A stretch of 45,430 nt of DNA from an uncultured Alphaproteobacteria bacterium (lineage in GTDB: Bacteria > Pseudomonadota > Alphaproteobacteria > UBA11222): contig CALAQW010000196.1 of assembly GCA_937888955.1 (NCBI GenBank), positions 1-45,430 of the forward strand, given 5' to 3'. The notes beneath the pieces are model-generated. The model was not told where the DNA came from, made no database searches, and was given only the letters and a program-made list of their open reading frames with translations. Positions 31,219 to 40,761 of the stretch are shown piece by piece (position 1 is the stretch's first letter; each line of letters starts with the position of its first letter). The position numbers were made by a program, and so were the translations under genes.

Positions 31219-33684
31219 TTAAACGAATATCCCGGCATCCCGCAAGCGCGATACCTCCGCCGCCGGCATGCCGAGCAGTTCAGTGAGTACATAGTCGGTA
31301 TCTTCGCCAAGCATGGGCGCGGCCTTTGACAGCCTGGCGGGCGTGTCGGAAAAAATCGTCGCAGGCCCGTCATAGGGGGTCGGGCCCATCTTGCTGTGGG
31401 GCAAGGTGACGAAAAACTTCCGATGCAGCAATTGCGGATCCTCGTAAAGATCGCTTGGCCGCAAGACGACCGAAGCGGGAACCCCCGCCGCGCGCAATGC
31501 GGATGCCAGCGCGAAGGGGGGCTGACCGGCGCAGAACTGCGTCAGCGCCGCATTGATGTCGTCCTTCACGGCAAGCCGCGCGGCCAGGCTGGCGAAACGG
31601 TCATCGGCAAAGGCCGACAGCCCGGCGGCCTTGCAGAGCGCGCGCCATTCGGTTTCATTGCTTACCGAAATGGCGACATAGCGTTCAATGCCAGCGGTTC
31701 GGTAAACTCCGTGCGGGCATTCCGACTGGGAATCATGCCCCCCCGCCGGTGCAATCCGGCCATTTACCGTATAATCGAGCAGCAGCGGCTCAAGGAAATG
31801 CACACCGGCTTCGACCTGCGACAGATCGATATGCTGGCCCTTGCCGCTGCGGGCGCGTTCGAAAATTGCCGCAGCAATACACAGCGCGCCGAACCGCGGT
31901 GCAATCATATCGGTATAGGCGCCATAAGGTCCTGCCGGCGGCCGGTCGGGCCAACCGGTAATACTGTGTAGTCCCGCGAGTGCCGCGCCCTGATTGCCGA
32001 AGCCGCCAAAACTGCGTTCGGGTCCGGTCTGGCCGCGCAGGCAGGTGCTGAGCCGGATAAGGTCGGGATGGTCGCGGCTGACTTCATCCCATCCAAGGCC
32101 GAACTTGTCCATGGTGCCCGGGGTGAAGCTTTCCAGCGTGACATCGCACCAGTCGATCATCTGGCGTGCGATCTGGCGGCCTTCCGCAGTTGACATATCC
32201 AGCGCCAGACCCAGTTTCGAACTATTGAAATTTGCGATGAACTGACTGTTGTTAATGTCCGGCACGCGCCGTTTGAAAGGGGGCGCCATGCGCAGCACGT
32301 CGGGCCGTTTGGACGATTCGATCCGCACGACGGTCGCGCCATGATCGGCCAGGAATTTGCTGATGATCGGGCCAACCCCGACCCAGGCGAAATCGGCGAC
32401 TTTCAGTCCCTTGAAGGGTTGTGGATCGCCATCGATCTTGATCGGGTCGATCATGGCGGGGCGGTGCGCGGCGGGTGTCGCCGCGCTGCGCGCGGCAGAC
32501 AGCGTGGGCGCGGGCGCGTCATTGCCCACATTGTTGCGTGAAAAGCGCGCGAACGGGCCCGCATGGGTGCGTCCGCCAATCCTGACCCAGAAGTCGCGGG
32601 CCTGGAATTGCACGTCCTCCAGCAGATCGGCGGTACTGGCGATCGGCACATTCAGCAACCCGTGCGAATTGGCGCGGGCGATGATTTCACGTTTGGTTTT
32701 GGTTCCCAGAAACGCGATGCCAAGCTGTGTCGCCTCGTTCACCTGGGCAATCGTGATCTTGTTTGCCTTCCATTCCCTGGCCCATTCATTCCACTCTATT
32801 TGGGGGATGTGATCAGGCAGCGGGCCTTCTTCCTCGATCCGCCAATAGACCACCTCGCCCAGGGCGCGGGCGGTGGGGCCCACCGTCCCCATCAAATTCG
32901 TGACATACCCATCGGCGCATTTGAGGATTCCCGGTGTTTCGAGGCCGGGCACCCGTGGCGGCTCGGGCAACGGCCGTTCAGGCCCGGTGCCGGGGACATC
33001 GCGCCCCTCATTGGGGGGAAAGCCGGTCGCGTTCATCAGACACCAGACCATGCAGGCCTGCATGGATACATCGAGATGCTGCCCTGCGCCGGTCCTGTCG
33101 CGCGCATTCAGCGCGATGACCGCATCGGCTGCCGCCTGGACGCCGGCATGATAGGCCGCTTGCGGAAAGCTGATCGGTACCGGCGGGCGGTCGCCATCCC
33201 CTTGCAGACCAAGCAAGCCGCCGGCTGCTTCGAGTGTCAGGCTTGTTGCCGGGTCGCGGGCTGCGGGCCCGTCCTGTCCGAACGGCGTAACCGATACATA
33301 GACGAGTGTCGGGTTGCGCTTGTGCAGCTCGGCATAGCCCAGGCCGAATTCCGCGAGATAACCCGGATCGAAACTTTCGATGAGGATATCGGCGCCTGAG
33401 ATCAGCTCAAGCAGCCGGTCGCGGTCGTCCGGTGACTGCAAATCCAGTGTCATGCATTGTTTGCCCCGCCCCATTGCGGCCCAGTAAAGCGACGCGTCGG
33501 GGTCATTTTCGCGGCCTTGCTCGAATGGTGGCAGGAAGCGTGCCGCGCTGCCTTCGGGCGGTTCGACCTTGATCACTTCCGCTCCCAGATCGGCAAGTAC
33601 CCGGCCGGCCATCTCCGCCCTTGCATTCGCAAGATCGATTACGCGGACCCCATTCAACGCGCCAGTTTGTTTTCCGTCAGACAT
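31219..33684 (-). CDS. Double-length CaiB/BaiF-type CoA-transferase (family III)
   Basis: 821 aa with two CoA-transferase III domains: N-half [32 protein letters not shown]-half LKVADFAWVGVGPIISKFLADHGATVVRIES. Confidence 0.9.
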   Translation of the reverse strand: MSDGKQTGALNGVRVIDLANARAEMAGRVLADLGAEVIKVEPPEGSAARFLPPFEQGRENDPDASLYWAAMGRGKQCMTLDLQSPDDRDRLLELISGADILIESFDPGYLAEFGLGYAELHKRNPTLVYVSVTPFGQDGPAARDPATSLTLEAAGGLLGLQGDGDRPPVPISFPQAAYHAGVQAAADAVIALNARDRTGAGQHLDVSMQACMVWCLMNATGFPPNEGRDVPGTGPERPLPEPPRVPGLETPGILKCADGYVTNLMGTVGPTARALGEVVYWRIEEEGPLPDHIPQIEWNEWAREWKANKITIAQVNEATQLGIAFLGTKTKREIIARANSHGLLNVPIASTADLLEDVQFQARDFWVRIGGRTHAGPFARFSRNNVGNDAPAPTLSAARSAATPAAHRPAMIDPIKIDGDPQPFKGLKVADFAWVGVGPIISKFLADHGATVVRIESSKRPDVLRMAPPFKRRVPDINNSQFIANFNSSKLGLALDMSTAEGRQIARQMIDWCDVTLESFTPGTMDKFGLGWDEVSRDHPDLIRLSTCLRGQTGPERSFGGFGNQGAALAGLHSITGWPDRPPAGPYGAYTDMIAPRFGALCIAAAIFERARSGKGQHIDLSQVEAGVHFLEPLLLDYTVNGRIAPAGGHDSQSECPHGVYRTAGIERYVAISVSNETEWRALCKAAGLSAFADDRFASLAARLAVKDDINAALTQFCAGQPPFALASALRAAGVPASVVLRPSDLYEDPQLLHRKFFVTLPHSKMGPTPYDGPATIFSDTPARLSKAAPMLGEDTDYVLTELLGMPAAEVSRLRDAGIFV

Positions 33685-33898
33685 AGTCGTTCCCCGGGCT
33701 GATGCCAGGAAGGTTGCGCCTTCCCGGAATTATTCTTGTTCATCGATTGTTACTCTAGCATGCGGCCCGCGCAAGGCAATTGGCGCGCATCGCTGGCAAT
33801 GCTGGTTCTTCTGCCAAGCCTGACCTATGCTGTGCAGGCGCGATGATCCGGTGTGGCCGGGCTTGCCGGGATTGTCCGGCGCGCCGGCGGGAGGAAAT

Positions 33899-34855
33899 AT
33901 GAACGACTTTGTCGAACCCCATTTCGTCGAAACGAATGGTATTCGGATGGCCGTGTATGAACAGGGGCAGGGCATACCCGTCATCCTGTGTCATGGCTGG
34001 CCGGAGCTTGCCTATTCCTGGCGGCATCAATTGCCTGCGCTGGCGGCCGCCGGATTTCGGGCAATTGCGCCCGATCAGCGCGGTTATGGTGAAACCGATG
34101 CCCCGCCGGCGATTACCGATTATGACATTCATCATCTGACGGGCGATCTTGTCGGTCTGCTGGATGCGCTGGGTATCGAGAAGGCGGTTTTTTGCGGTCA
34201 TGACTGGGGCGGCATCGTCGTCTGGCAGCTGCCGTTGCTGCATCCGGACCGGGTGGCCGGGGTGATCGGGCTGAATACGCCGTTTCTGCCACACGGGCCG
34301 ATTGACCCGATCGCCGGATTTCGGGCCGCGTTCGGCGAAGATATGTATATTGTCTGGTTTCAGGAGCCCGGTGTCGCTGAAGCGGTGCTCGATCCGCAGC
34401 CTGAAAAGCTGCTCAGCCTGCTGATGCGTCGGTCGGGCATGCGTTTGGATGAATATGATGCGCAGCCCGCCGAGCGGCGCAACTTTGCGATCAAGGATAT
34501 GCTCAAGGCGGATCTTGCCATGCTGTCTGGTGAGCCGTTGCTTGACGATGCTGAACTTGCGGTCTTTGCAAATGCGTTCCGGCGCACCGGATTTCGCGGC
34601 GGCATCAACTGGTATCGCAACTTTTCACGCAACTGGGAGCTAACCGCAGAGCTGACCGAGCGGATCGATGTGCCTTGCCTGATGGTCATGGCGGAAAATG
34701 ACGCGGTGTTGCGGCCGGCCATGGCGGACGGCATGGAGCAATATTGCCCGCAACTTGAAAAACATCTGGTGCGCAATTGCGGTCACTGGACCCAGCAGGA
34801 ACATCCCGAAGAGGTCAATCGTGTAATTATCGATTGGTTGAAGCGGCATTTCTGA
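33899..34855 (+). CDS. Alpha/beta hydrolase, epoxide-hydrolase-like
   Basis: VILCHGWPELAYSWRHQLPALAAAGFRAIAPDQRGYGETDAP; nucleophile FCGHDWGGIVVWQL; NCGHWTQQEHPEEVN. Confidence 0.93.
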   Translation: MNDFVEPHFVETNGIRMAVYEQGQGIPVILCHGWPELAYSWRHQLPALAAAGFRAIAPDQRGYGETDAPPAITDYDIHHLTGDLVGLLDALGIEKAVFCGHDWGGIVVWQLPLLHPDRVAGVIGLNTPFLPHGPIDPIAGFRAAFGEDMYIVWFQEPGVAEAVLDPQPEKLLSLLMRRSGMRLDEYDAQPAERRNFAIKDMLKADLAMLSGEPLLDDAELAVFANAFRRTGFRGGINWYRNFSRNWELTAELTERIDVPCLMVMAENDAVLRPAMADGMEQYCPQLEKHLVRNCGHWTQQEHPEEVNRVIIDWLKRHF

Positions 34856-34893
34856 TCGGGTTTGCCGTTCTTGCCGAAACAGCGTGCCGAGGT

Positions 34894-35301
34894 ATGCGCA
34901 TGAGTGGACATGAAGCCGTATTGTTTGCCAATGACATATTCTATCAGGCATTCGCGACCCGCGATCTTGAGGCGTTGCGCGAATTGTGGGCGGCTGAGCC
35001 GGTTGTGACCTGCATCCATCCGGGATGGGGACCGATTTTCGGCCGCACGGCCGTGCTGGAAAGCTTTCATGCCATTTTCAATGGACCCAACCCGCCTGAT
35101 GTGCGCTGTCAGGCGGCGCGGGCGGTATTGCGTGGCGATACGGCTTATGTGCTGTGCTACGAGCATATTGACGGGCAGTTTCTGGTCGCCACCAACATCT
35201 TCACCCGGTCTGAAAATCAATGGCGAATGATCCACCATCAGGCCGGACCAACGGCGACGGCACCTGAGGTGACTGAAGAAACGCCGCATGCAATTAACTG
35301 A
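34894..35301 (+). CDS. NTF2/SnoaL-like family protein
   Basis: ANDIFYQAFATRDLEALRELWAAEPVVTCIHPGWGPIFGRTAVLESF...FTRSENQWRMIHHQAGP. Start 34894 or 34900. Confidence 0.88.
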   Translation: MRMSGHEAVLFANDIFYQAFATRDLEALRELWAAEPVVTCIHPGWGPIFGRTAVLESFHAIFNGPNPPDVRCQAARAVLRGDTAYVLCYEHIDGQFLVATNIFTRSENQWRMIHHQAGPTATAPEVTEETPHAIN

Positions 35302-35609: not shown

Positions 35610-36962
35610 ATGAACGAACAGGTGGTATCACCCCTGTCGCAGCCCGACATGACCCCCTTGCCCGATGGCGCCGCGGCGCGGGCAGTCGGCATTGACGCCA
35701 CCATGCAGGCGAAGCTTACGGCGCGTCCGCTGCGGATTCTGCTGCCGAGCTATCGCAGCCATCCCCATACCGGCGGGCAGGGCGTTTATATCCGGCATCT
35801 CAGCAAGAGCCTGGTGGATCTCGGTCATCATGTGGATGTCATTTCCGGGCCGCCATATCCCGAGCTTGATCCCCGGGTGGGACTGATCAAGCTGCCTTCC
35901 CTGGACCTTTACGCACAACCAAAACCCTTGCTTGGTTTCCCGCGCGCGCAATGGGGCAGTGCGGTCAACTGGATCGAATATCTCAGCTTCGCTTCCGGCG
36001 GATTTCCCGAGCCGCTGACCTTCGGTCGCAGGCTGGTCGACTATCTGCGGCAAACCCGCGCGTCCTACGATATCATTCACGATAATCAGACCCTGTGTAC
36101 CGGATTGCTGGAACTGCGCGATATGGGGTATCGGGTGATCAGCACGATCCATCACCCGATCACCAAGGATCGTGCCCTTGCCATCGCGGCACAGAAAAAC
36201 CCCTGGTACAAGTTCCTGGTCTGGCGCTGGCACTTTTTCCTCAATATGCAGCAGCGGGTGGCGCGCGCATTGGATGATATCGTTGTGGTATCGCAATCCA
36301 CCTATCGCGATTTGATCGATGAATTCGGCCTGCGGCCCGCGCAGATGGAAGTCATTCTGGAGGGGATCGAGACTGAAAAATTCCATCCCCTGTCCGATGT
36401 CGCGCGCAAGCCGAACCGTCTGATGGCGACCGCCAGCGCCGATGTCGCGCTGAAGGGGCTTGTCTATCTAATTCGGGCCTATGCGCGGCTGCTGCCGGAA
36501 TTCCCCGATCTTGAGCTGGTTGTTGTCGGCAGCCTGCGCAAGGGGCCGACGGATGACCTTCTGCAGCAGCTTGGTATCAAGGACCGGGTGCGGTTTGTCT
36601 CGGGCATTACCGATGCGGACATCAACAAACTTTATGCCGAAGCGACGGTTGCGGTCAGCCCGTCGCTTTATGAAGGATTTGGCTTCCCGGCCGGTGAGGC
36701 GATGGCGGCCGGCGTGCCGCTTGTCGCGACGACCGGCGGGGCATTGCCCGAAGTGGTCGGCGATGCGGGGGTTCTGGTTCCACCGGGGGATGCCGCGGCG
36801 CTGGCGGACGGGATTGCCGCGCTGTTGCGCGATCCGGCGCGGCGCGCGCATTTGTCGGAAGCAGGGCGCGCGCGGGTCCTGCGGGAATTCCAATGGTCCC
36901 GGGTCGGTGTGGAGCTGACAAAATACTACTACGCCAGATTGGATCAGCATGCGGACAATTAA
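35610..36962 (+). CDS. Glycosyltransferase family 4 protein
   Basis: HTGGQGVYIRHLSKSLVDLGHHVDVISGP; VAVSPSLYEGFGFPAGEAMAAGVPLVATTGGALPEVVGDAGVLVPPGD (EX7E motif). Confidence 0.93.
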   Translation: MNEQVVSPLSQPDMTPLPDGAAARAVGIDATMQAKLTARPLRILLPSYRSHPHTGGQGVYIRHLSKSLVDLGHHVDVISGPPYPELDPRVGLIKLPSLDLYAQPKPLLGFPRAQWGSAVNWIEYLSFASGGFPEPLTFGRRLVDYLRQTRASYDIIHDNQTLCTGLLELRDMGYRVISTIHHPITKDRALAIAAQKNPWYKFLVWRWHFFLNMQQRVARALDDIVVVSQSTYRDLIDEFGLRPAQMEVILEGIETEKFHPLSDVARKPNRLMATASADVALKGLVYLIRAYARLLPEFPDLELVVVGSLRKGPTDDLLQQLGIKDRVRFVSGITDADINKLYAEATVAVSPSLYEGFGFPAGEAMAAGVPLVATTGGALPEVVGDAGVLVPPGDAAALADGIAALLRDPARRAHLSEAGRARVLREFQWSRVGVELTKYYYARLDQHADN

Positions 36963-37665
36963 GATTGAAACATTGCCGTTGCGCGATGGTGACAGGGTGC
37001 TTGATCTGGGCTGCGGCCATGGCCGGCATATGCATGCGTTATACTATGCGAAACGGTTGCATGCGGTCGGTGTCGATCTCGGGTTCGAGGATCTGAAGAT
37101 CACGCGCAAGGGGTTCGAGGATAATCCCGACCTGGAAGAAAATTCGCGCCGCACATACAGTCTCGTGCAGGCGGATGCGGGGATATTGCCGTTTCCGGAT
37201 GCGACGTTCGATACGATTGTCTGTTCCGAGGTGCTTGAGCATATACCCGATTATGAAACGGTGCTGGAGCAGATATTCCGTGTGCTGAAGCCGGGCGGAA
37301 CCCTGGCTGTCAGCGTGCCGCGCAGCTGGCCTGAATGGATCTGCTGGAAGTTGAGCCCTGAAGGTTATGCCAATGATCCCGGCGGCCATGTGCGGATCTT
37401 CAATGCTGCCGAACTCAGATGTCAGATCGAGCGTCGCGGCTTGCGGTTTTTGCGAAAACATTGGGCGCACGGGCTGCATTCGCCTTATTGGTGGCTGCAA
37501 TGCCTGAACTGGGAAAAGCGTGACCGTTCGCGGGCGGTGAAAGCCTATCACCGTTTTCTGGTCTGGGATATCACCAGGCAGCCGCTTGTGACGCGTCTTC
37601 TTGAGGCCATCAGCAGTCCGGTCATGGGAAAAAGCGTCGTCATGTATTTTGTGCGAGAGGGGTAA
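36949..37665 (+). CDS. Class I SAM-dependent methyltransferase
   Basis: RVLDLGCGHGRHMHAL; FDTIVCSEVLEHIPDYETVLEQIFRVLKPGGTLAVSVPR. ATG overlaps the GT4 stop by 14 nt. Confidence 0.92.
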   Translation: MRTIKIETLPLRDGDRVLDLGCGHGRHMHALYYAKRLHAVGVDLGFEDLKITRKGFEDNPDLEENSRRTYSLVQADAGILPFPDATFDTIVCSEVLEHIPDYETVLEQIFRVLKPGGTLAVSVPRSWPEWICWKLSPEGYANDPGGHVRIFNAAELRCQIERRGLRFLRKHWAHGLHSPYWWLQCLNWEKRDRSRAVKAYHRFLVWDITRQPLVTRLLEAISSPVMGKSVVMYFVREG

Positions 37666-37668
37666 GGG

Positions 37669-38784
37669 ATGGAGAAGCTCTATCTCGGCAAGGGACAGTT
37701 TCCGCCAAAATTCTTCGATGGGGCGGCGCAGCGCATTCTTGACCTGCAGCGTGGTGACGGGGCGATCCCCTGGTTCGATGGCGGTGTTGTGGATCCCTGG
37801 AATCATATCGAAGCGGCAATGGGGCTCAGCATTCTTGGACATCGCGATGATGCGGAATCCGCCTATCGCTGGCTTGCGCAGACGCAATTGGCCGATGGGT
37901 CCTGGTGGGGGGAGCTGGGTGCTTCTGTCCCGGTCGATCTTGAGGATCATAAATTCAAGGGCGATGGCTCCGAAGGCGAGCCGCCGGTGCGCGATACCAA
38001 TTTCTGTGCCTATATCGCGACCGGGATCTGGCATCATTATCTGATCACGAAGGAGCGGCGGTTTCTGGCCGAGTTCTGGCCCTGCGTGGAACGGGCGATC
38101 GACTTTGTCCTGCAATTGCAATCCGAGCATGGGGAGGTGCGCTGGGCTGCTGATGATCCGCACCGCGAAACCGCTGATGACGCGCTGCGTACCGGTTGTG
38201 CGTCAATTTACAAAAGCCTGGAATGTGCGTTGCGCATTGCGACCGAACTTGGCCATCCGCGCCCTGACTGGGTGGCGGCGCGGTCGGCACTGGGGCAGGC
38301 TTTGCGCCACAAGCCGCACCGTTTTGACCGGACCTGGGACTCAAAGGAGCGTTATTCGATGGACTGGTATTACCCGGTCCTGGCCGGCGCATTGCAGGGG
38401 GAAGCGGCACGATCGCGTATTGCGGGAAAATGGGATCTGTTTGTCGAGGAAGGGCGCGGCTGCCGCTGTGTGTCCGACGAGCCCTGGGTGACGGTTGCCG
38501 AAACCTGCGAACTGACGCTCGCCCTGATGGCCATGGGCCAGCCGGTGCGCGCGATGGAGCTGTTCAGCTGGGTGCATCAATACAGGGACGATACCGGCGC
38601 CTATTGGATGGGCTATCAGATGGTTGAAGAAATCCACTGGCCCCAGGAAATGCCCGCCTGGACGGCCGGCGCTGTGTTGCTGGCCGCTGATGCGTTGTGC
38701 CAGGCGACCGACGGCGCGCGATTGTTTGTCGAGGTCTTAGACGAGGATGCGGCGCAGGACAGCGAGCGTTTTTACCGTCGCTAG
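37669..38784 (+). CDS. Alpha/alpha-barrel protein of the type usually annotated 'prenyltransferase' (terpene-cyclase/six-hairpin-glycosidase-like fold)
   Basis: QW-like repeats ILDLQRGDGAIPWFDGG and LAQTQLADGSWWGEL; repeating helical pairs; starts 3 nt after the methyltransferase stop. Confidence 0.7.
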   Translation: MEKLYLGKGQFPPKFFDGAAQRILDLQRGDGAIPWFDGGVVDPWNHIEAAMGLSILGHRDDAESAYRWLAQTQLADGSWWGELGASVPVDLEDHKFKGDGSEGEPPVRDTNFCAYIATGIWHHYLITKERRFLAEFWPCVERAIDFVLQLQSEHGEVRWAADDPHRETADDALRTGCASIYKSLECALRIATELGHPRPDWVAARSALGQALRHKPHRFDRTWDSKERYSMDWYYPVLAGALQGEAARSRIAGKWDLFVEEGRGCRCVSDEPWVTVAETCELTLALMAMGQPVRAMELFSWVHQYRDDTGAYWMGYQMVEEIHWPQEMPAWTAGAVLLAADALCQATDGARLFVEVLDEDAAQDSERFYRR

Positions 38785-39369
38785 TTCCTCGAAAAGCCCC
38801 GAAGCCAGGGCCAGCTTGTAAATTTCATACGGTGCCTGACCGCCATCCGCCGGGTCGGGGAAGATATCATGGATCGCCAGAATGCCGCCGGGTTGCACAT
38901 GCGGCGCCCAGCAGCGGTAGTCATTCGCGGCGGCTTCGAATGTGTGGCCGCCATCGATAAATACGAAAGATAGCGGCATCGTCCAGAAACGCGCGGCCAG
39001 CGTCGAACGCGTAACAAGCGGAATGACGGTTTCCTCAAGCCGGGCGGCGCGCAATGTTCGGCGCAGGAACGGCAAAGTATCCATGGCGTCCGCCGCCTTG
39101 TCCCAAAGATCCGTATCGTGATAATCCCAGCCGGGCTGGTTTTCTTCAGACCCCCGGTGATGGTCAAGCGCGAACAGAAGACTGCCCGCAGCCTTGAAGG
39201 CGGTCCCCAGATAGACCGTCGATTTGCCGCAATAGGAACCGATTTCAAGGCCGGGCCCGCGCTCCGCCACTTGCGCGGCATAGTGATGAAGTGCCGCGCC
39301 TTCCTGCGCATCCATGAAGCCCTTGACCTGCTGGATGTCGATCGGCAGTTGCGGCAACGTGAATTGCAT
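38737..39369 (-). CDS. Class I SAM-dependent methyltransferase (Methyltransf_24-like)
   Basis: GLEIGSYCGKSTVYLGTAFKAAGSLLFALDHHRGSEENQPGW; LSFVFIDGGHTFEAAANDYRCWAPHVQPGGILAIHDIF. Start Met at 39369. Confidence 0.87.
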   Translation of the reverse strand: MQFTLPQLPIDIQQVKGFMDAQEGAALHHYAAQVAERGPGLEIGSYCGKSTVYLGTAFKAAGSLLFALDHHRGSEENQPGWDYHDTDLWDKAADAMDTLPFLRRTLRAARLEETVIPLVTRSTLAARFWTMPLSFVFIDGGHTFEAAANDYRCWAPHVQPGGILAIHDIFPDPADGGQAPYEIYKLALASGLFEELATVKTLAVLRRILV

Positions 39370-39417
39370 GTTTGTTCCCTTTCCGGATAATCGCGCCATG
39401 GCAGCCCGACAGGCGCG

Positions 39418-40761
39418 TCAGTGATTGTTAGCTTGCGGGGAAAATAGCGGCAAGGATTGAATGCGCGCGTCGATCTCCGCGATCGCCGCCTGATAGGGGG
39501 GGCTGTCGAAATCGCGGTAGATGCGTTCGAAATCCGCCTGCTGCAAAACCTGTGGAAAGTCATCGAGCCGCGGAAAAAAATCGCGTGCGTTTCGGGTCTC
39601 GGCAAGTTGCTGTTGCACATGCCGTGCCGTCAGCGGATCAAGCGCCTGCTGCGCCAATAATGTGCCGACCCGGCCTGCGGCAAGGTCGGCGAAGCTGAAG
39701 CCTGTGCCGCCGGGCGCTGTGTCTGTGAATTCCTTGATTTCGCCCAACGCGTTGGCCAGCCCGGAATTGCCGGTGATTTGCAGCGCGGCGGAGGTGGCAA
39801 GATGTTGCACAAGGTCATGCCGGCCCTGAATGCGGACCGCGCGCGCATTGGGCGGCGGTCCGGCAAGCGCCGCCGTGCGGACCGCCGCCGCAAGATGCGG
39901 CATGGGCAGATCGCCAAAATAAAGCGCAAAGGCCAGCAGGGCGGCCCGGTTTTCCATAACGGCCGTGGCATCGCCCTTGGTGCCGCTACGCGCTTGTGCC
40001 AGCGAAAAAATCTCGCGCAGCATGTCTGTTACCGGATAGCGGCGGTCTTCGAATGCGATGCCCAAGGCATGCAGCCTTGTATAGTAAAGCCTGACTTTTT
40101 CGGGCGGCGCGGCCCAATCGGGGGTGTTTCGGGTCAAGGCTGTGAATAGCTGATTGGCAAGATCCGCATTCGCGCGGTACTGAACGCCCATATCGTTTTC
40201 TGTCAGCCGCAATGTCAGAATGGCGGCGCTGATCTCGTCTGACTTTGCGGTTTCGAACAGGAACAGCGGCAGAAGCCGCGCGACAAGTTGCCCCATCATA
40301 TCGGGTAGCTGCTGCTCGCCGGCTTTGACATAGGCCAGCCTCAACCCCTTGTCCGATGGCGGGAAGCCAAAGCTGAAATTCGCGAATTCGGCAATCGGGT
40401 TAGGGGGCAGCCGGTGGGAGATCCGAACTTCCAGCATTGTCTCAGACAGCGAAGCCATGCCGCGCGTATCGCGCATGCTGCGTGAGATGACCCGTCCCAG
40501 GCTGTCCAGTTCCGGTTTGGAAATGACCAGACTTGCCGGCTCCTCCCCCGATTTCAGGTTCGCGCGATATTGTGCCAGCACCGCGCGCGCATGATGCGCA
40601 TCCTGCCATTGCACCGGGCCGGGTGGCGGGACGGTGGCGTGCCGGTCCAGGGCGTGCCATGCGCCCCAGCCCGCGACCGCCATGACGCCTGTCACAAGGC
40701 CCGCGATGACCGTGAGCGAGGAGCGGACGATTGCCGGTCGCCATTTCCGCTTGCTGTGCAT
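39418..40761 (-). CDS. Uncharacterised membrane-anchored protein, 447 aa
   Basis: N-terminal TM (SSLTVIAGLVTGVMAVAGWGAWHAL); GRHDLVQHLATSAALQITGNSGLANALGEIKEFTDTAPGGTGFSFADLAAGRVGTLLAQQAL. Confidence 0.8.
   Translation of the reverse strand: MHSKRKWRPAIVRSSLTVIAGLVTGVMAVAGWGAWHALDRHATVPPPGPVQWQDAHHARAVLAQYRANLKSGEEPASLVISKPELDSLGRVISRSMRDTRGMASLSETMLEVRISHRLPPNPIAEFANFSFGFPPSDKGLRLAYVKAGEQQLPDMMGQLVARLLPLFLFETAKSDEISAAILTLRLTENDMGVQYRANADLANQLFTALTRNTPDWAAPPEKVRLYYTRLHALGIAFEDRRYPVTDMLREIFSLAQARSGTKGDATAVMENRAALLAFALYFGDLPMPHLAAAVRTAALAGPPPNARAVRIQGRHDLVQHLATSAALQITGNSGLANALGEIKEFTDTAPGGTGFSFADLAAGRVGTLLAQQALDPLTARHVQQQLAETRNARDFFPRLDDFPQVLQQADFERIYRDFDSPPYQAAIAEIDARIQSLPLFSPQANNH

What the first reader, a model, noticed from the sequence alone, without database searches (positions are those of the whole stretch)
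35610..39369. Compact GT4 / SAM-methyltransferase / alpha-barrel / SAM-methyltransferase cluster of unknown product
The first three genes are coupled (14-nt overlap, then 3-nt gap) and a fourth methyltransferase converges on them with an overlapping 3' end. GT4 and MTase chemistry plus a barrel protein suggests synthesis or tailoring of a small methylated glycoconjugate or glycolipid. There are no flippase, polymerase, nucleotide-sugar or O-antigen genes, so it is not an ordinary polysaccharide locus. I know of no characterised pathway with this set.
Basis: inference. Interest (0 to 1): 0.7.

Follow-up and report, generated by a model that had tools for sequence, protein, structure and literature searches.

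The report
Methylmannose-polysaccharide gene cluster in an alphaproteobacterium
These four genes are the gene set that mycobacteria use to make and recycle a cytoplasmic methylated-mannose chain (MMP); here it lies in an alphaproteobacterium and recurs in many marine proteobacteria, which means that the chain is probably not a special device of mycobacterial fat synthesis.

Summary
In detail: 35610-39399 holds a GT4, a SAM methyltransferase and a barrel protein, tightly coupled, and a convergent second methyltransferase. The pathway is not unknown. GT4, barrel and convergent methyltransferase are clear homologues of three solved enzymes of mycobacterial 3-O-methylmannose polysaccharide (MMP) synthesis: ManT (7qsg, E 7e-105), MmpH (7qsj, 2e-93) and MeT1 (6g7d, 1.5e-62). 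The remaining gene occupies the place of the putative 3-O-methyltransferase pMeT3. The order manT-meT3-mmpH with convergent meT1 is the same in the window, its relatives, Parvibaculum, OCS116, PS1, Halieaceae, SAR86 and 18 of 20 sampled actinobacterial loci. Catalytic residues are conserved. The published account covers only Actinobacteria; I found no paper on MMP in Proteobacteria. By sampling, MmpH occurs in 46% of actinomycete, 9% of Alpha- and 2.6% of Gammaproteobacteria genomes. Type I fatty acid synthase, which MMP is thought to regulate, is absent from all 57 non-actinobacterial carrier handles tested, so FAS-I control cannot be the general role. All but one alphaproteobacterial MmpH has Asn for Asp50, pointing to Asp47 as catalytic acid. 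The product has not been shown chemically. In many Gammaproteobacteria the cluster lies among LPS-core genes, so an LPS-related use there is not excluded.

The parts
35610..36962 (+). manT homologue: GT4 (GT-B) alpha-(1->4)-mannosyltransferase of MMP
   Evidence: phmmer to M. hassiacum ManT 7qsg E 7.3e-105, next hit 5e-25; 47% identity over 397 aligned columns; residues equivalent to G15, H142, K240, E313, E321 invariant in 120 homologues
36949..37665 (+). pmeT3 homologue: class I SAM methyltransferase, inferred 3-O-methyltransferase of the mannose chain
   Evidence: position and co-conservation; Methyltransf_23; nearest folds are the sugar O-methyltransferases RebM and AtmM. Activity inferred; pMeT3 itself is still 'putative' in the literature (PMC9883506)
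37669..38784 (+). mmpH homologue: (alpha/alpha)6-barrel MMP endo-alpha-(1->4)-mannosidase
   Evidence: phmmer to 7qsj E 2.2e-93; Foldseek to 7qsj E 4.8e-31, TM 0.83/0.88; D47, W49, M215, Y219, E262, E265 conserved, D50 is Asn
38737..39399 (-). meT1 homologue: reducing-end 1-O-methyltransferase (likely start 39369)
   Evidence: phmmer to 6g7d E 1.5e-62; IDGGH and IHD motifs conserved; AGGGA upstream of ATG 39369

Best explanation
The locus is an alphaproteobacterial 3-O-methylmannose polysaccharide (MMP) cluster that works as in mycobacteria. ManT extends an alpha-(1->4)-mannan chain from GDP-mannose. The second gene (MeT3) adds 3-O-methyl groups. MmpH cuts mature chains into short primers that ManT extends again (partially conservative self-replication). 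MeT1 caps the reducing end of fragments with a 1-O-methyl group. The product is a free, slightly hydrophobic, cytoplasmic methylmannan that can bind long acyl chains or acyl-CoA. Shown here: homology of ManT, MmpH and MeT1 to the enzymes, gene order, catalytic residues, GDP-mannose supply in relatives, absence of signal or membrane segments. Inferred: substrate identity, chain length, MeT3 activity, acyl-CoA buffering as the role.
For: Best solved relatives of three proteins are the three solved MMP enzymes, by large margins. MmpH fold match to 7qsj, next structure 22 orders of magnitude weaker. Identical order manT+ meT3+ mmpH+ meT1- in 18 of 20 actinobacterial loci, 19 of 20 further proteobacterial loci and 58 of 80 named loci, most of the others being cut by contig ends or having meT1 moved. 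Six genomes whose meT1 is not beside mmpH each keep exactly one MeT1 elsewhere, so the four travel as a set even when unlinked. Active-site residues invariant. GDP-mannose enzyme GMP/PMI over the curated cut-off in 8 of 8 relatives and as a fragment at a contig edge in the window genome. No membrane or signal segment in any of the four. Mechanism and names: PMC9883506.
Against: Identity to the characterised enzymes is only 47-52%, so acceptor, chain length or methylation pattern could differ. MmpH has Asn at Asp50, where D50A strongly lowers activity of the mycobacterial enzyme. No MMP has been isolated from a proteobacterium as far as the searched library shows. In Halieaceae and SAR86 the genes sit among LPS-core genes.
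Confidence: 0.85

Rival explanations
1. The proteobacterial version makes a methylated mannan or mannose cap attached to LPS or another envelope glycan; the gene set was adopted from MMP but serves the outer membrane.
For: In SAR86 manT follows a GT9 heptosyltransferase, a GT4 and a Kdo kinase with a 3-nt gap, and meT1 abuts hldE, a lipid A acyltransferase and waaA. 18 of 32 long gammaproteobacterial loci have glnE, ilvE, hldE or waaA nearby. 3-O-methylmannose O-antigens exist (Oligotropha, alpha-1,2-linked; cited in PMC9883506).
Against: No lipid-carrier, flippase, ABC exporter or ligase gene in the unit. MeT1, kept in every genome tested, would cap the reducing end needed for attachment. An endo-hydrolase of the product is always kept. 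The LPS context is absent in all 19 long alphaproteobacterial loci apart from a distant ilvE in four, and the same set exists in actinobacteria, which lack LPS.
Confidence: 0.08
2. A paralogous pathway on a different oligosaccharide (other sugar, other linkage): same enzyme types, different product.
For: 47-52% identity only; MmpH Asp50 to Asn; the ManT residue aligned with Asp293, a guanine contact, varies.
Against: All other active-site and donor-site residues tested are invariant or nearly so, including both ManT glutamates and the MmpH subsite residues W49, M215, Y219 and E265. The same Asp50/Asn variation occurs inside actinobacteria (4 of 22 rows). MmpH is single-copy in the window genome and nearly all carriers, with the same gene order as in mycobacteria.
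Confidence: 0.07

Closest known systems
MMP cluster of Mycobacterium (M. hassiacum MHAS_04402-04405; M. smegmatis MSMEG_6481-6484), PMC9883506
   Same: All four genes, order and orientation (mycobacterial-like loci L119, L122, L130); ManT, MmpH, MeT1 catalytic residues; fold of MmpH
   Different: 47-52% identity; MmpH Asp50 to Asn; host is an alphaproteobacterium without FAS-I; product not shown
Mycobacterial 6-O-methylglucose lipopolysaccharide (MGLP) pathway
   Same: Also a glycosyltransferase plus methyltransferase route to a cytoplasmic polymethylated polysaccharide (PMC2674218, PMC9883506)
   Different: Glucose polymer with other enzymes; the window proteins match the MMP enzymes instead
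LPS core / O-antigen loci with methylated mannose (e.g. Oligotropha 3-O-methylmannan, cited in PMC9883506)
   Same: 3-O-methylmannose units; LPS-core neighbours of the cluster in many Gammaproteobacteria
   Different: alpha-1,2 linkage and lipid-linked in the known case; here no export genes, and a reducing-end cap enzyme and an endo-hydrolase are present

Membership tests
MMP biosynthesis cluster | ManT: GT4 orthologue with donor and catalytic residues (G15, H142, K240, E313, E321) | tested here: met
   7qsg E 7e-105; residues invariant in 120 sequences including the window
MMP biosynthesis cluster | MmpH: (alpha/alpha)6-barrel with base Glu262 and acid Asp47 | tested here: met
   7qsj E 2e-93 and fold match; E262 and D47 in 131 of 131
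MMP biosynthesis cluster | Asp50 of MmpH (not defining: Asn also in 4 of 22 actinobacterial rows) | tested here: not met
   Asn in the window and 52 of 53 alphaproteobacterial rows; Asp in 46 of 46 gammaproteobacterial rows
MMP biosynthesis cluster | MeT1 1-O-methyltransferase orthologue | tested here: met
   6g7d E 1.5e-62 over 195 residues
MMP biosynthesis cluster | pMeT3 methyltransferase between manT and mmpH | tested here: met
   Same place and 40-46% identity in actinobacterial clusters; its activity is unproven in any organism
MMP biosynthesis cluster | Gene order manT-meT3-mmpH with convergent meT1 | tested here: met
MMP biosynthesis cluster | GDP-mannose supply | tested here: met
   GMP/PMI in 8 of 8 relatives; C-terminal fragment at a contig edge in the window genome
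MMP biosynthesis cluster | Cytoplasmic alpha-(1->4)-linked 3-O-methylmannose chain of 11-14 units | not testable with these tools
   Needs chemistry; only the absence of signal and membrane segments was seen
LPS core / O-antigen synthesis | Export, ligation or lipid-carrier genes in the unit | tested here: not met
   None in the unit or its immediate neighbours in the window
LPS core / O-antigen synthesis | Location in an LPS gene cluster | tested here: inconclusive
   No in the window and Alphaproteobacteria, yes in SAR86 and many Halieaceae

The most novel reading that the evidence does not exclude
MMP is an ancient, general bacterial cytoplasmic acyl-chain carrier, kept in streamlined marine bacteria (SAR86, OCS116, PS1) and independent of FAS-I; in the Gammaproteobacteria its placement among lipid A and LPS-core genes reflects a role in handling acyl chains for the outer membrane. 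The mycobacterial FAS-I link is then a secondary use.
Probability: 0.25. Interest if true: 0.85.

Novelty: new member of a known kind. Interest (0 to 1): 0.6.

Why it matters
MMP has been studied for decades as a peculiarity of mycobacteria and a few other actinobacteria, with an unproven role tied to FAS-I and the lipid-rich envelope. Finding the intact, ordered gene set in Alpha- and Gammaproteobacteria, including Parvibaculum, Haliea and SAR86, gives non-mycobacterial hosts without FAS-I in which the function can be tested. Natural variation in these hosts also suggests which aspartate of MmpH is the catalytic acid, a point the published mutants left open.

Tried and rejected
Pfam and NCBIfam do not name the pathway: gene 3 has no Pfam hit and only a weak, misleading partial hit to oligosaccharide amylase TIGR01577; the PDB sequence search did. 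Contamination as the source was rejected: the neighbourhood is collinear in a second genome of the same genus and MmpH is in all six genomes of the family. Mobile or plasmid-borne origin: one match among 72,556 plasmid records, in an 11.85-Mb Nonomuraea record, which is chromosome-sized. Promoter and terminator scan: not above shuffled sequence. Most apparent minus-strand conserved neighbours in the neighbour clustering overlap the cluster and look like antisense shadow ORFs; I dropped them. The 2019 MeT1 paper (PNAS) is not held, so I could not check whether it mentions Proteobacteria.

Full report
What is there. The four ORFs are at the stated places. Gene 1 ends at 36962, gene 2 starts at 36949; gene 2 ends at 37665, gene 3 starts at 37669; gene 4, on the minus strand, ends at 38737 inside the last 48 bases of gene 3.

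Identification. A sequence search of solved structures gives an unambiguous answer. Gene 1 matches M. hassiacum ManT (7qsg) over 401 residues at E 7e-105, with the next GT4 at 5e-25. Gene 3 matches MmpH (7qsj) at 2e-93 and its predicted structure (mean pLDDT 83) matches 7qsj at TM 0.83/0.88, the next fold being far weaker. Gene 4 matches MeT1 (6g7d) over 195 residues at 1.5e-62. Gene 2 has no solved orthologue; its model (pLDDT 89) is nearest to the sugar O-methyltransferases RebM and AtmM, and it holds the position of the putative 3-O-methyltransferase pMeT3. These are the four genes of the MMP cluster described in PMC9883506.

Conservation of the set. All ten relatives first examined carry the four genes in the same arrangement (in L023 manT is broken into several pieces, which I did not examine further). 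Of 80 named loci from a scan of GTDB genomes, 58 show manT-meT3-mmpH followed by convergent meT1, three have meT1 upstream, nine have the triad without a neighbouring meT1, and the rest lack one or more genes, mostly at contig ends. Six genomes with the triad alone have exactly one MeT1 elsewhere. In 20 actinobacterial loci 18 have the identical arrangement. Some loci come from the same genome, so counts are not independent.

Distribution. MmpH was found in all six genomes of the window's family, 34 of 385 sampled genomes of the class, 7 of 274 of the class of Seongchinamella, i.e. Gammaproteobacteria, and 138 of 297 of the class of Marinactinospora, i.e. actinomycetes. Named carriers include Parvibaculum, Rhodobiaceae, OCS116, PS1, IMCC14465, Halieaceae, SAR86, Zhongshania, Spongiibacter, Microbulbifer, Marinibactrum, one Syntrophaceae and one SAR324 bin. 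A tree of the four proteins joined (72 rows, quick method, SH-aLRT only) separates actinobacteria from the rest with full support, and most Alpha- and Gammaproteobacteria fall in separate clades. This fits old presence with patchy loss, or few transfers; the root is not known.

Active sites. Over 131 MmpH sequences Asp47, Trp49, Met215, Tyr219, Glu262 and Glu265 are invariant. Asp50 is Asn in 52 of 53 alphaproteobacterial rows and 4 of 22 actinobacterial rows but Asp in all 46 gammaproteobacterial rows, with at least three changes on the tree. The published mutants left open whether Asp47 or Asp50 is the acid; natural replacement of Asp50 favours Asp47. The four actinobacterial Asn rows also have Tyr for Trp315. 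In ManT the five donor and catalytic residues tested are invariant in 120 sequences; the column aligned with Asp293 varies.

FAS-I. Polymethylated polysaccharides were proposed to regulate FAS-I and to hold acyl-CoA (PMC2674218; PMC9883506). A FAS-I marker (PF08354) is absent from all 7 proteobacterial carriers and all 50 non-actinobacterial handles (G484 and G1021 appear to be the same genome, and G708 is a Syntrophaceae). It is present in 6 of 21 actinobacterial carriers, and those six plus M. hassiacum form one clade of the tree. So the cluster is mostly found without FAS-I.

Rival. In SAR86 the cluster follows waaC/F-like GT9, GT4 and Kdo kinase genes and abuts hldE, lipid A acyltransferase and waaA, and Halieaceae are similar. 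A link to LPS in those groups is therefore possible. The reducing-end cap enzyme, the endo-hydrolase, the lack of export genes and the absence of this context in Alphaproteobacteria and in actinobacteria argue against it as the general role.

Limits. The product has not been shown. Literature was searched only in an open-access library; subscription papers, including the 2019 MeT1 paper, were not available. Frequencies are from samples of genomes.

Noticed in passing
L099:3417-15396 (SAR86) and L039, L043, L048, L056, L076 (Halieaceae and relatives): The MMP genes sit inside or beside the LPS-core/lipid A region (GT9, GT4, Kdo kinase, hldE, acyltransferase, waaA, tolC).
   Followed up: partly
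window 31219-33684: 821-aa protein with two class III CoA-transferase (CaiB/BaiF) domains in one chain; conserved in the same genus.
   Followed up: no
window 33827-35301: An alpha/beta hydrolase (epoxide hydrolase/haloalkane dehalogenase-like) and a SnoaL-like gene lie upstream of manT; one or both recur there in many alphaproteobacterial carriers.
   Followed up: partly
window 39418-40761: 447-aa protein without any Pfam family, beside two AsmA-like genes; conserved next to meT1 in the window's family, not seen in the other alphaproteobacterial loci checked.
   Followed up: no
MmpH alignment, residues equivalent to 50 and 315: Four actinobacterial MmpHs change Asp50 to Asn and Trp315 to Tyr together.
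   Followed up: partly
G000 contig C95:3-437: GMP/PMI gene (GDP-mannose synthesis) of the window genome is cut by a contig edge; intact in relatives.
   Followed up: yes
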